Assembly: GCA_012514255.1 (NCBI GenBank)
Contig: JAAZAP010000194.1
Location: forward strand, 1 to 6,862
Length of the DNA: 6,862 nucleotides
DNA from: Bacteroidales bacterium
GTDB taxonomy: Bacteria; Bacteroidota; Bacteroidia; Bacteroidales; VadinHA17
Direction of reading: 5' to 3'
Positions 588-5,105 of the stretch are shown here, one piece after another (within the stretch, counting starts at the first letter, position 1; each line of letters begins with the position of its first letter). A model generated the notes under the pieces. The model was not told the origin of the DNA, ran no database searches, and worked only from the letters and a program-made list of their open reading frames with translations. The position numbers and the translations under genes are program-made.

Positions 588-617
588 CAGCCTCGAAAAA
601 GTTGCCTTTTGTAGGGA

Positions 618-633
618 AGGTCGGGAGTTCAAT
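618..633 (+). repeat. Isolated tRNA T-arm fragment
   Basis: The sequence AGGTCGGGAGTTCAAT resembles the variable loop, 5' T-stem strand and T-loop of a tRNA. The core AGGTCGRGAGTTC recurs at 713-725 in the degenerate tRNA and at 781-793 in the intact tRNA. No 3' T-stem or acceptor strand follows. Instead GTCGGGA (620-626) pairs perfectly with TCCCGAC at 652-658. I read it as a scar of a lost tRNA, or of recombination within the T-arm. It sits inside the transcript expected from the promoter at 554-587. Confidence 0.5.
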
Positions 634-660
634 GAATTAATGATATGGCGATCCCGACGG

Positions 661-728
661 GTCTGGATCAGATGGTTAGAGCGTCCCGCATCCGCCGGCT
701 GGCGGATCGGGGAGGTCGAGAGTTCTTT
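661..728 (+). pseudogene. Degenerate tRNA copy with anticodon arm replaced by a hairpin
   Basis: Two blocks are identical to the intact tRNA downstream: 668-683 equals 748-763 (D-loop, D-stem and base 26) and 712-725 equals 780-793 (variable loop and T-arm start). Between them the 16 bases of the intact gene are replaced by 28 bases. These include TCCGCCGGCTGGCGGA (691-706) and form a long hairpin: CCCG, an unpaired C, ATCCGCC, a GGCT loop, GGCGGAT, CGGG. The D-stem 5' strand is changed (GATC for GCTC), and the 3' T-stem and acceptor strands are missing, with an A-run following. It cannot fold as a complete tRNA, so I call it a pseudogene formed by partial duplication. The hairpin may be a dispersed palindromic repeat that inserted into, or was captured by, the anticodon arm. 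Confidence 0.65.
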
Positions 729-736
729 AAAAAAAA

Positions 737-810
737 GGCGAGATAGCTCAGATGGTTAGAGCGCATGATTCATAATCATGAGGTCGAGAGTTCAATTCTC
801 TCTCTCGCTA
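737..810 (+). tRNA. tRNA with anticodon CAT, probably elongator tRNA-Met
   Basis: All arms can be drawn. Acceptor 737-743 pairs with 803-809 and the discriminator is A810. The D-stem is GCTC/GAGC. Anticodon stem CATGA/TCATG (764-768/776-780) holds loop TTCATAA with anticodon CAT at 771-773. The variable loop is AGGTC, and T-stem GAGAG/CTCTC (786-790/798-802) holds loop TTCAATT. CCA is not encoded: ACA follows at 810-812. The first acceptor pair would be a G1-U72 wobble. The anticodon stem lacks the run of three G-C pairs of initiator tRNA, so it is an elongator Met tRNA or, less likely, the tRNA-Ile read with lysidine; the sequence does not fully separate these. The 3' end from 794 on is repeated twice downstream. 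Confidence 0.93.
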
Positions 811-812
811 CA
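794..812 (+). repeat. 19-bp direct repeat, copy 1 (tRNA 3' end, attB-like)
   Basis: AATTCTCTCTCTCGCTACA covers the end of the T-loop, the 3' T-stem strand, the 3' acceptor strand, the discriminator and two more bases. Exact copies lie at 978-996 and 1162-1180, both with 184-bp spacing. The left limit is set by C793 against T977/T1161, and the right limit by A813/A997 against C1181. A tRNA 3' end duplicated at the far side of inserted DNA is the classic footprint of tyrosine-recombinase integration. Confidence 0.75.
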
Positions 813-820
813 AAGCCAGG

Positions 821-850
821 CCCTTCCTGCGAAAGCAGGAGGGGTTTTTT
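821..850 (+). terminator. Intrinsic terminator in unit 1
   Basis: CCCTTCCTGC (821-830) pairs with GCAGGAGGGG (835-844) over ten positions with one G-T wobble, around a GAAA tetraloop, and is followed by TTTTTT (845-850). It lies 10 bp past the tRNA discriminator base and should end the tRNA transcript here. It was brought in with the unit and is not the ancestral terminator. Confidence 0.9.
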
Positions 851-947
851 GTTGAATGGCTCATGAGCTTGTTCAATGAGACATGGAGACAAAAAGCCCC
901 GAAAGCGGCGTAAGCCGCAAGGGCTTGGTTTTGTCAGGCATCCCCAA

Positions 948-985
948 GGAGAATCACGGTCAACCGGAGGTTGCCGTAATTCTCT
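948..985 (+). repeat. Long imperfect hairpin overlapping tRNA-end copy 2
   Basis: GAGAAT (949-954), a C-A mismatch, ACGG (956-959), a bulged T960 and CAACC (961-965) pair with GGTTG (969-973), CCGT (974-977) and ATTCTC (979-984), with loop GGA. A G948-T985 wobble can extend it. The 3' arm takes in the first bases of the tRNA-end repeat, so the same sequence that pairs within the tRNA can here form a different stem. An identical hairpin lies 184 bp downstream at 1132-1169. Confidence 0.7.
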
Positions 986-996
986 CTCTCGCTACA

Positions 997-1180
997 AAGC
1001 CAGGCCCTTCCTGCGAAAGCAGGAGGGGTTTTTTGTTGAATGGCTCATGAGCTTGTTCAATGAGACATGGAGACAAAAAGCCCCGAAAGCGTCGTAAGCC
1101 GCAAGGGCTTGGTTTTGTCAGGCATCCCCAAGGAGAATCACGGTCAACCGGAGGTTGCCGTAATTCTCTCTCTCGCTACA
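997..1180 (+). repeat. 184-bp tandem unit 2 ending in a tRNA 3'-end copy
   Basis: This is the second copy of the unit, 183 of 184 bases identical to the first. The one change, T1092 for G908, breaks a G-C pair in the inner GCGGC/GCCGC hairpin. It ends with the third 19-bp tRNA 3'-end copy at 1162-1180, and the sequence then switches to what looks like the native region after the tRNA. Near identity points to a recent duplication or insertion, or to ongoing homogenisation by recombination between the units. Confidence 0.85.
1005..1034 (+). terminator. Intrinsic terminator in unit 2
   Basis: It is identical to the hairpin at 821-850: a ten-position stem, a GAAA loop and six T residues. No transcript is known to reach it, because the first copy should already stop the tRNA transcript, unless there is read-through or a promoter inside the unit. 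Confidence 0.85.
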
Positions 1181-1190
1181 CTGAAAATCA

Positions 1191-1229
1191 ACCACTTACA
1201 TGGTTAAACATATAAGTGGTTTTTCTTTT
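1191..1229 (+). terminator. Probable native terminator of the tRNA locus
   Basis: ACCACTTA (1191-1198) pairs perfectly with TAAGTGGT (1213-1220), with two more pairs possible after a mismatch, followed by a T-rich run (1220-1229). It begins 10 bp after the last tRNA 3'-end copy. Removing the two 184-bp units would place it directly behind the tRNA, so it is probably the original terminator. Confidence 0.82.
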
Positions 1230-3873: not shown

Positions 3874-3881
3874 TATTTTTG
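3874..3881 (+). promoter_or_regulatory. Candidate -7 element of the isomerase-like gene
   Basis: TATTTTTG fits TAnnTTTG exactly and lies 21 bp before the ATG at 3903. The nearest TTTG (3841-3844) is 29 bp upstream, longer than the usual spacer, so the -33 box is poor or the promoter needs an activator. Its position argues against a TTG start at 3879, which would fall inside this box. Confidence 0.45.
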
Positions 3882-3902
3882 ATAAAGGATAACAATTATT
3901 TG

Positions 3903-5105
3903 ATGAGTGAGAGAAACAAAATGCATGCCAGCAGGGATTTGTGTCTGAATGTGGCATGGGCGGCACACGGCGGAGCCGTACCCGGGACTGCTTTATTGGC
4001 CGAAGAATTCATGAGCCGCTTACTGCCACCGGATGCTTTCAAAATGACAGACAGCCATCCTGACATCATCCTGTTCATGAGTGGCGGTTCTGAACGAAGG
4101 GCAATAGAGATGGCTGATCCTGAGCGGCCTGTACTGCTCCTTAGTATCCGCGGTAACAACGCATACGCGGCAGCAACTGAGGTGATGGCATGGATGACAA
4201 ATAAAGGCAGGATTGCCACTCTGTCTGATGCTGCTGATGCGGCAGAATCAGGACTGTTGAACAACTGGCACAGGGTTGTGGGAGCATGGAAGGTGTTGAG
4301 GGGCAGCACTGCAGGGCTGGCAGGAACAGTCTCGGAATGGCTTGTGGCATCAGATGTATCTGCTGAAACGCTGCTTGGGAGATTTGGGATCAGCCTGAAG
4401 GCGAAGCCATGGTCCGGTTTGCCTGATTTTGCGAGATCAGAGCCTGACAGGGCCCTGATGAAAAGGTTTAACGGTCAGGATCTGCCGGGTCTGGAAGATG
4501 AGGCTCGTGTGCTGACGCTGTTGCGAAGAGTGATCAGGGATAATAACCTGGATGCCATTGCAGTGGAATGTTTCAGCCTGGTACAGGAACGAAAGGTCAC
4601 GGCATGTCTGGCGCTGGCGCAGTTGAACGCAGAGGGAACGGTGGCTGCATGTGAGGGAGACCTCGCCTCCATGGCTGGCATGATGGCAGTAAAAGCACTG
4701 ACGGGCAGCGTTCCCTGGATGGCCAACACCACGCGACTGACGGATAGTAGCCTTGTTCTCACACACTGTACTGCTCCCTTTGACCTTCTGAAAGACATGA
4801 CACTGCGGACACACTATGAGACAGGTTTGTCTTTGGCCGTTGACGGGGAAATCAAACCTTCGGAGGTGACAGTCTGCAGATTCTCTGAAAAGCTTGACCA
4901 TGCTTTCATTGCTGCAGGCAGGGTTATCAGCAGACCTCATCTTGAAGATGCCTGCCGCACACAGGTAGAGATAGAGCTTTCTCCGGAACCACTCAGGGAA
5001 CTCAGGGAGAGACCGTTGGGCAATCACCTGCTTTTGTTGCCAGGCCACCATTGTGAGCTGCTCCGTCTTGCCTGCAGGTATAAAGGGATAGCATTGACAG
5101 TTTGA
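3903..5105 (+). CDS. L-fucose isomerase-like sugar isomerase (COG2407 family)
   Basis: This is a cytosolic protein of 400 residues from the ATG at 3903. An in-frame TTG at 3879 is less likely because it overlaps a promoter element, and a second ATG lies at 3921. The C-terminal half has the conserved series of the L-fucose/L-arabinose isomerase-like family: VECF (221-224), ACEGD (249-253), THCTAP (287-292), HYETG (304-308), RTQVEIEL (352-359), GNH (373-375) and PGHH (380-383). Family members interconvert ketoses and aldoses with a divalent metal. E222, E251, D253, H288, H375 and H382/H383 are candidate metal or catalytic residues by inference. At 400 residues it is shorter than classical FucI (about 590) and typical of the short family. 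The N-terminal half (residues 14-135) looks like the alternating alpha/beta region. The substrate is unknown. It lies 146 bp before an LsrG-like gene and may belong to the same catabolic unit. Confidence 0.78.
   Translation: MSERNKMHASRDLCLNVAWAAHGGAVPGTALLAEEFMSRLLPPDAFKMTDSHPDIILFMSGGSERRAIEMADPERPVLLLSIRGNNAYAAATEVMAWMTNKGRIATLSDAADAAESGLLNNWHRVVGAWKVLRGSTAGLAGTVSEWLVASDVSAETLLGRFGISLKAKPWSGLPDFARSEPDRALMKRFNGQDLPGLEDEARVLTLLRRVIRDNNLDAIAVECFSLVQERKVTACLALAQLNAEGTVAACEGDLASMAGMMAVKALTGSVPWMANTTRLTDSSLVLTHCTAPFDLLKDMTLRTHYETGLSLAVDGEIKPSEVTVCRFSEKLDHAFIAAGRVISRPHLEDACRTQVEIELSPEPLRELRERPLGNHLLLLPGHHCELLRLACRYKGIALTV

What the first reader, a model, noticed from the sequence alone, without database searches (positions are those of the whole stretch)
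737..1229. Two 184-bp units inserted at a tRNA 3' end, each regenerating 19 bp of the tRNA
The tRNA 3' end AATTCTCTCTCTCGCTACA occurs at 794, 978 and 1162 with an exact 184-bp period, and the two intervening units are 183/184 identical. After the last copy comes a different terminator (1191-1229) that would sit right behind the tRNA if both units were removed. That is the expected layout of two tandem site-specific insertions at a tRNA attB. At 184 bp, though, the units are far too short to encode an integrase. They may be a non-autonomous, trans-mobilised mini-element, a deletion remnant, or a slippage duplication. The exact use of the tRNA end as the boundary favours site-specific recombination.
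Basis: partly seen in the sequence, partly recalled or inferred. Interest (0 to 1): 0.72.

Follow-up and report, generated by a model that had tools for sequence, protein, structure and literature searches.

The report
Structured cassettes behind bacterial tRNA genes
The doubled 184-base unit behind this tRNA gene looks like one member of a family of short, elaborately folded, gene-free DNA cassettes that sit right behind many kinds of tRNA gene in Bacteroidota and are present, absent or different in close relatives.

Summary
Units of nine genomes at this locus share one fold (base stem, three hairpins, right-end hairpin; 21 of 42 pairs covary). A covariance model of them hits 18 of 19 relative genomes; of 98 sense hits examined, 75 start within -2 to +4 nt of a tRNA 3' end (Met, fMet, Pro, Cys, Ser, His, Arg, Asp, Val, Gly). 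Hits examined in order- and phylum-wide samples (10 and 19 fetched loci) also lay behind tRNAs. Tandem series occur elsewhere, once with units of different sequence. Relatives have precise empty sites (L010 occupied, L013 empty). They carry no gene; I found no mobilising enzyme that tracks with them, no Rfam match, and no description in eight literature searches. Best reading: non-autonomous cassettes inserted at tRNA 3' ends by a trans-acting recombinase, turning over quickly and doubling as terminators. Main rival: inherited structured terminators with local duplication and loss. Mechanism unproven.

The parts
737..811 (+). tRNA-Met (CAT), intact, the target gene
   Evidence: ARAGORN; Rfam RF00005 73.3 bits
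794..812 (+). 19-bp 3' end of the tRNA (T-loop to just past the discriminator), left copy of the direct repeat
813..977 (+). cassette 1 (165 bp between direct-repeat copies)
   Evidence: R1 model match 810-984, 125.6 bits, (this unit was one of the nine used to build R1)
810..934 (+). folded body of cassette 1: base stem 810-824 with 920-934, hairpin H1 825-840, long hairpin H2 841-900, hairpin H3 905-918
   Evidence: RNA fold; covariation of the same fold in nine genomes
818..847 (+). intrinsic-terminator-like hairpin with T tract directly behind the tRNA
948..985 (+). right-end hairpin GGAGAATCACGG...CCGTAATTCTCT; its right arm is the first part of the next tRNA 3'-end copy
   Evidence: helix 5
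978..996 (+). second copy of the tRNA 3' end
997..1161 (+). cassette 2, one base different from cassette 1 (G908 vs T1092)
   Evidence: R1 match 994-1168, 123 bits
1162..1180 (+). third copy of the tRNA 3' end
1181..1229 (+). flank with the terminator-like repeat that lies directly behind the tRNA in empty-site relatives
   Evidence: inverted repeat 1190-1221; same sequence directly after the tRNA in L004, L009, L013
647..736 (+). tRNA-Met 5'-part-like block (GGCGA..TCAGATGGTTAGAGCG..GAGGTCGAGAGTTC) with palindromes in place of arms; a similar 85-bp block is present in L013 and absent in L010. Probably a separate phenomenon
612..646 (+). shorter second tRNA 5'-part-like remnant (AGGTCGGGAGTTCAAT)

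Best explanation
The 184-bp units are two tandem members of a Bacteroidota family of non-coding cassettes ('tRNA-tail cassettes', my name). Each is about 150-200 bp: a copy of the target tRNA's 3' end, then a cross-shaped fold (base stem closing three hairpins, the first of which also serves as the tRNA's terminator), then a right-end hairpin that runs into the next copy of the tRNA 3' end. They sit in one orientation at the 3' end of tRNA (and tmRNA) genes, with the break point in or next to the T-loop, so that the tRNA keeps or regains a complete 3' end and the old 3' end is left behind the cassette. Shown: anatomy, conserved covarying fold, position behind many tRNA kinds, empty sites, tandem series, differences between close relatives. 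Inferred: that insertion is site-specific recombination done in trans by a tyrosine-type recombinase of another element or of the host, that exact loss runs through the same direct repeats, that H1 terminates tRNA transcription, and that the one-sided conserved fold reflects a folded single-strand intermediate or selection as a terminator.
For: Empty versus occupied sites at the tRNA-Met locus; close pair L010/L013 with both flanks conserved and only cassette plus right tRNA copy missing. Model R1: 18 of 19 relative genomes have matches, 120 in all. Dropped: 19 antisense shadows of listed hits and 3 further units in loci already counted. Of the 98 others, 75 start -2 to +4 nt from a same-strand tRNA end and 83 have a same-strand tRNA or tmRNA within 361 nt; by eye, six more lie behind tRNAs cut by a contig end or N, two behind tmRNA, two behind a bare tRNA 3' end. 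Order sample: 9 of 99 genomes (G004 itself included); the 12 hits outside G004 lie at 10 loci, each behind a tRNA. Phylum sample: 14 of 296 genomes (G004 included), 28 hits; the 19 loci fetched and read all lie behind a tRNA, 16 directly and 3 as a later unit of a series; 8 hits were not fetched. Right tRNA copy at least 15/17 in 17 of 80 units. Tandem series: three units at tRNA-Val in L160; two units of different sequence at tRNA-Pro in L197, the first followed by a copy of the tRNA-Pro end including CCA. Covariation: 21 of 42 pairs changed on both sides, 90% of cells paired versus 44-55% when slid. Arms fit the local tRNA better than permuted tRNAs.
Against: No mobilising gene found: Y1 transposases in 9 of 19 genomes, integron integrase over cut-off in 0 of 19, GIY-YIG in 10 of 19. 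Five of the 98 hits have no tRNA in reach (L091, L123, L298, two in L300), most of them partial right halves. In 63 of 80 units the right tRNA copy scores below 15/17, as expected of old residents or of no full duplication. Units at one tRNA resemble each other across species (read), which also fits vertical descent. In the pair G010/G013 only the Met locus is a clean presence/absence; at four other tRNAs the unit was seen in G013 only, but the downstream flank does not align within 500 nt, and in G010 the Pro-CGG tail is broken by another insert. Seven further genomes gave 0 of 7.
Confidence: 0.58

Rival explanations
1. A vertically inherited structured tRNA tail (elaborate two-way terminator or 3' RNA) that duplicates locally by slippage or unequal crossing-over between its tRNA-end repeats and is lost by recombination between them; no insertion from elsewhere.
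For: Terminator-like hairpin with T tract in the window; T tract in the first half in 79 of 93 bodies, A tract in the second half in 74 of 93; units at the same tRNA resemble each other across species; near-identical tandem copies in the window; arrays of repeated right halves.
Against: A first unit needs a tRNA 3'-end copy at its right, which slippage alone does not make; different bodies at the same tRNA in the close relatives G010 and G013 (Pro-GGG, Ser-GGA); tandem units of different sequence (L197); patchy distribution.
Confidence: 0.25
2. Nested insertion: the moving unit is a whole tRNA gene plus its structured tail, inserted into the T-loop of the resident cognate tRNA, leaving the old 5' part upstream and the old 3' part downstream.
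For: Two 5'-part-like blocks and two extra 3' ends in the window; in L002 the upstream remnants and the downstream copy are of the GAGAG/CTCTC T-stem type around an inner CCGAG/CTCGG tRNA; long 5' parts upstream of intact tRNA-Cys plus unit in L111, L096 and L089.
Against: By alignment score only 9 of 73 unit-bearing tRNAs tabulated have their own 5' part upstream (palindrome-broken blocks, as in L002, can escape this test); the three-unit tRNA-Val locus L160 has none; L013 has a 5' block but no unit, and L010 lacks that block but has the unit.
Confidence: 0.08
3. Deletion remnants of ordinary tRNA-integrating islands: attL and attR with the interior lost.
For: Direct repeats have the size and place usual for such att sites (recalled); L120 is an attR-like bare tRNA-Cys 3' end about 200 nt from a truncated ORF that I judge recombinase-like (Pfam gave no match).
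Against: A conserved covarying fold shared by the tails of many tRNA kinds is not expected of independent deletion scars.
Confidence: 0.05

Closest known systems
Tyrosine-recombinase integrative elements and satellites that use tRNA 3' ends (recalled class)
   Same: Insertion at the tRNA 3' end with a direct repeat from the T-loop to the tRNA end that keeps the tRNA whole; tandem insertions possible.
   Different: 150-200 bp, no gene, conserved cross-shaped fold, many tRNA kinds served by one structural family.
Miniature non-autonomous elements (MITEs) and REP/REPIN repeats (recalled; PMC3733652 and PMC4596501 seen only in search listings)
   Same: Short, structured, non-coding, several per genome.
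   Different: Nearly all hits lie behind tRNA genes instead of scattered; a long copy of the target is part of the unit; Y1 transposase found in only 9 of 19 genomes.
Integron gene cassettes / attC sites (recalled)
   Same: Folded structure with bulges; series behind a fixed site.
   Different: No integron integrase over cut-off in 19 genomes; target is a tRNA; no coding cassette; no GTTRRRY core shared across tRNA kinds (read).
Intrinsic terminators of tRNA genes
   Same: Hairpin plus T tract directly behind the tRNA.
   Different: Only the first part of the unit; H2, H3, the right-end hairpin and the tRNA-end copy are not needed for termination.
Rfam structured RNA families of Bacteroidetes
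   Same: Covarying multi-hairpin fold in the same phylum.
   Different: No Rfam 15 family reached its gathering score other than tRNA itself, in the window or in 14 further loci; the weak matches listed there are below it.

Membership tests
tRNA-site integrative element (tyrosine recombinase) | Direct repeat of the tRNA 3' end at both borders | tested here: met
   Window: three exact 19-bp copies; elsewhere 17 of 80 units keep at least 15/17
tRNA-site integrative element (tyrosine recombinase) | Encodes its own integrase | tested here: not met
   Only ORFs of 51-73 aa touch the units in the ORF list of at least 50 aa
tRNA-site integrative element (tyrosine recombinase) | Empty attB in relatives | tested here: met
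tRNA-site integrative element (tyrosine recombinase) | Excised circle | not testable with these tools
   needs reads or PCR
MITE of a DDE or Y1 transposon | Dispersed copies at unrelated sites with short target duplication | tested here: not met
   83 of 98 hits have a same-strand tRNA/tmRNA close upstream; ten more lie behind a cut tRNA, a tmRNA or a tRNA 3' end by eye; five do not
REP/IS200-IS605 group (Y1_Tnp) | Y1 transposase in host genomes | tested here: inconclusive
   9 of 19 relative genomes (drafts) have PF01797
Integron cassette array | Integron integrase IntI | tested here: not met
   TIGR02249 over cut-off in 0 of 19; no unit within the 11 fetched stretches around recombinases below the cut-off
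Known structured RNA family | Match to an Rfam 15 model | tested here: not met
Intrinsic terminator | GC hairpin followed by T tract behind the gene | tested here: met
   818-847 and 1002-1031; function not tested

The most novel reading that the evidence does not exclude
These cassettes are a new class of mobile DNA that moves as a folded single strand and recognises its target, the T-arm and acceptor end of a tRNA gene, by structure and base pairing: base stem and right-end hairpin carry short arms complementary to the particular tRNA, special loops occur on one strand only, and one family thereby serves about a dozen tRNA kinds and tmRNA while replacing each gene's terminator.
Probability: 0.25. 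Interest if true: 0.92.

Novelty: new variant of a known kind. Interest (0 to 1): 0.74.

Why it matters
If right, tRNA genes in several lineages of a large phylum carry small, gene-free, quickly changing tails that I found described nowhere in the sources searched. They would be among the smallest users of tRNA attachment sites, a case where one structural family fits many targets, and a source of variation in where tRNA transcription ends. Some assemblies here break right at a unit (for example L005, L074, L100), so they may also matter for genome reconstruction, and they offer an easily scored marker of recombination in uncultured Bacteroidota.

Tried and rejected
Own-genome search and file: not held. 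Exact unit pattern in genome contigs and in viral contigs: 0 hits; tandem tRNA-end pattern in viral contigs: 0; in the phage and plasmid blastn the places listed (20 of 63 and 20 of 195 records) cover the tRNA part only.

GIY-YIG idea: small GIY-YIG genes lie next to tRNAs in several relatives, in tRNA-Gly and tRNA-Pro loci beside tRNA fragments. I first took them for the autonomous form, but they occur in 10 of 19 genomes and a motif scan found them at few unit loci, so I keep them apart. Nested tRNA-carrying element (see rival): dropped as the general case. Y1 transposase and integron integrase as motor: no consistent match. RNA versus single-strand DNA: loop bias is one-sided (C(GNA)G 28 sense versus 0 antisense, C(GNNA)G 40 versus 0, GNRA 27 versus 0; CTTG loop in 68 of 93 bodies against 13 for its complement), which says which strand folds but not whether it is RNA or DNA; that GNA loops are unusually stable in DNA is recalled (one search shows only listings). 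The terminator control had 34 hairpins only. The arm test against right copies did not decide whether the arm follows the tRNA or its copy. Permutation tests ignore relatedness. The base-stem detector alone is not specific: shuffled tails reach 9.8 (95% below 7.8), and tRNA-Ile tails scoring 10.3 are not units by eye.

Literature: searches listed nothing that I could recognise as this (I saw listings and the beginnings of abstracts); passages found by terms in PMC8040213 and PMC2864571 held no such element. Only open-licence PMC papers are held.

Full report
What is there. tRNA-Met 737-811 is followed by two 184-bp units, each ending with the tRNA's 19-bp 3' end, then by an inverted repeat at 1190-1221. 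The units differ at one base, G908/T1092. Each folds far better than shuffles as RNA (z -6.9) or DNA (z -6.4), has no ORF over 73 aa (list of at least 50 aa) and a terminator-like hairpin right behind the tRNA. No own genome is held; the closest records found with the START-like gene are Bacteroidales or Bacteroidetes assemblies.

Relatives at the same locus. With the START-like neighbour (116-502) I obtained 65 genome loci. I scanned 24 of them; 21 gave a tRNA-Met call beside the gene. Eight relatives carry a unit of the same architecture but diverged sequence (L002, L003, L005, L007, L010, L016, L018, L019). L004, L009 and L013 have the tRNA directly followed by the sequence that follows the window's units, and L012 a diverged form of it. 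L001, L008, L011, L015, L020-L022, L024 and L027 have no unit directly behind the tRNA but another tail; L015 has right-end remnants further down. On a tree of the START-like gene L010 (unit) and L013 (empty) are neighbours (support 93/84, branches 0.0015 and 0.02) and the window groups with L001 (no unit; 94/92); it is one short gene with many weak forks. In the alignment L010 and L013 agree closely upstream and in the downstream terminator, while the unit with its right tRNA copy is missing from L013.

The fold. In nine units aligned by MAFFT, RNAalifold gives 42 pairs, 21 with two-sided changes. 90.3% of cells pair versus 80.6% in shuffles and 44-55% with partners slid; covariation score 0.329 versus 0.164; one measure, further pair types, was not unusual (106 of 500 shuffles as high). 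The fold is a base stem, H1, a long A/T-rich H2 with an apical CTTG loop, H3, then a right-end hairpin whose right arm is the start of the tRNA 3'-end copy. Of 93 bodies later collected, 82 fold with exactly three hairpin loops. Special loops are on one strand, so the tRNA-sense strand is the one that appears to be under structural selection.

A family behind many tRNAs. Model R1, from the nine tRNA-Met-locus units, gave 120 matches in 18 of 19 relative genomes (the sequences it was built from match by construction). I dropped 19 antisense shadows and 3 further units in loci already counted. Of the 98 left, 75 begin -2 to +4 nt from a same-strand tRNA end and 83 have a same-strand tRNA or tmRNA within 361 nt. 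The other 15 were read by eye: six behind tRNAs cut by a contig end or N, two behind tmRNA, two behind a bare tRNA 3' end, five with no tRNA in reach, most of these partial right halves. Kinds: Met, fMet, Pro (3 anticodons), Cys, Ser (4), His, Arg, Asp, Val, Gly, plus tmRNA. In 99 genomes of the order, 9 had hits under stricter filters (G004 among them); the 12 hits outside G004 lie at 10 loci, all behind a tRNA, including tRNA-Val with three tandem units. In 296 genomes of the phylum 14 had hits (28 hits, G004 among them); the 19 loci fetched and read lie behind tRNAs, now also Lys, Leu and other Arg; 8 hits were not fetched. Seven further genomes, five of them named isolates, gave none, so tRNA tails in general do not trigger the model. 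R1 contains no tRNA body, though its first positions are the tRNA-derived ACA.

Fit to the target. The right tRNA copy is nearly complete (at least 15 of 17) in 17 of 80 units; in the rest mostly the part inside the right-end hairpin is left. 102 of 103 tails pass a lenient base-stem test (score 7), 93 the stricter one (score 9, no N); shuffled tails reach 9.8 at most, 95% below 7.8. Just outside the stem complementarity to the own tRNA end averages 2.71 against 2.15 for permuted tRNAs (0 of 500 as high). The left arm of the right-end hairpin matches the own T-stem better than permuted (5.24 vs 4.70, highest of 500 4.90). These tests ignore relatedness.

Turnover. In the close genomes G010 and G013 I fetched the tRNA tails (40 and 41 tRNAs recognised of 41 and 42 listed). 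All were scored for a base stem; I read the tails of Met, fMet and eleven other kinds by eye, plus Ile-GAT and Arg-TCT as controls, which are not units. Eleven tRNAs carry a unit in at least one genome: Met only in G010 (clean); Asp, Pro-CGG, Ser-TGA and Ser-CGA only in G013 (downstream flanks not alignable within 500 nt; the G010 Pro-CGG tail is broken by another insert); Pro-GGG and Ser-GGA in both but with different bodies, Ser-GGA with the same right-end hairpin; Pro-TGG, fMet, Arg-ACG and Gly-CCC related in both, each cut, truncated or reduced in one. L197 shows two tandem units of different sequence, the first followed by the tRNA-Pro end including CCA, which slippage cannot make.

What moves them. 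Nothing found tracks with them: Y1 transposase 9 of 19 genomes, integron integrase 0 of 19 over cut-off (eleven stretches around related recombinases hold no unit), GIY-YIG genes 10 of 19. One locus, L120, looks like the far end of an island integrated at tRNA-Cys, so ordinary integration may use the same target. Mobilisation in trans is therefore an inference without proof.

Judgement. A real family of structured tRNA-tail cassettes is well supported. That they are gained and lost is supported by empty sites, different bodies and tandem series. The enzyme, the nucleic acid form and the benefit are open. The main rival, vertical structured terminators with local duplication and loss, keeps about a quarter of my belief.

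Noticed in passing
window 612-736; L013 versus L010; L009: tRNA 5'-part-like blocks of about 85-90 bp upstream of tRNA-Met, with palindromes replacing D and anticodon arms; one block is present in L013 and absent in close L010. A mirror-image, separate repeat phenomenon.
   Followed up: partly
L111, L096, L089 upstream of tRNA-Cys; L084, L086 upstream of fMet: Extra tRNA 5' parts ending in the T-loop; in the Cys loci a palindrome-rich insert in the T-loop is followed by part of the tRNA 3' end.
   Followed up: partly
L001, L002, L008, L015 (tRNA-Met), L177, L180 (tRNA-Gly), L127, L176, L179 (tRNA-Pro), L182-L184 (tRNA-Val): Small single-domain GIY-YIG nuclease genes next to tRNA genes, often beside split or duplicated tRNA pieces; in L177 a tRNA-Gly 3' half and its terminator are repeated behind the gene. 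Looks like homing into tRNA genes.
   Followed up: partly
tRNA-Met in L001-L019: The T-stem of tRNA-Met differs by compensatory changes between relatives (GAGAG, GGGAG, CCGAG, CCGGG and others), even between L010 and L013 whose flanks agree closely.
   Followed up: no
L075, L076, L088, L089, L093, L156, L168, L189, L190, L202, L299, L300: Repeated right halves (from the H2 apex or H3 to the right-end hairpin), truncated at their 5' side, mostly behind a full unit.
   Followed up: no
L143, L147, L151: Units behind tmRNA, whose 3' end is tRNA-like; ARAGORN names it in L143, the other two are my reading.
   Followed up: partly
L288-L296: A tyrosine recombinase of about 400-470 aa (longer in L292) with an extra N-terminal region, related to integron integrases but below the cut-off, preceded in several genomes by a repeat-coding stretch and a motif like ATCGCTGCATATT, often near contig ends.
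   Followed up: partly
window 3879-5105: A 408-aa ORF with only a sub-threshold Pfam match (L-fucose isomerase C-terminal domain, E 4e-4), before an ABM-domain protein and an iron alcohol dehydrogenase.
   Followed up: no
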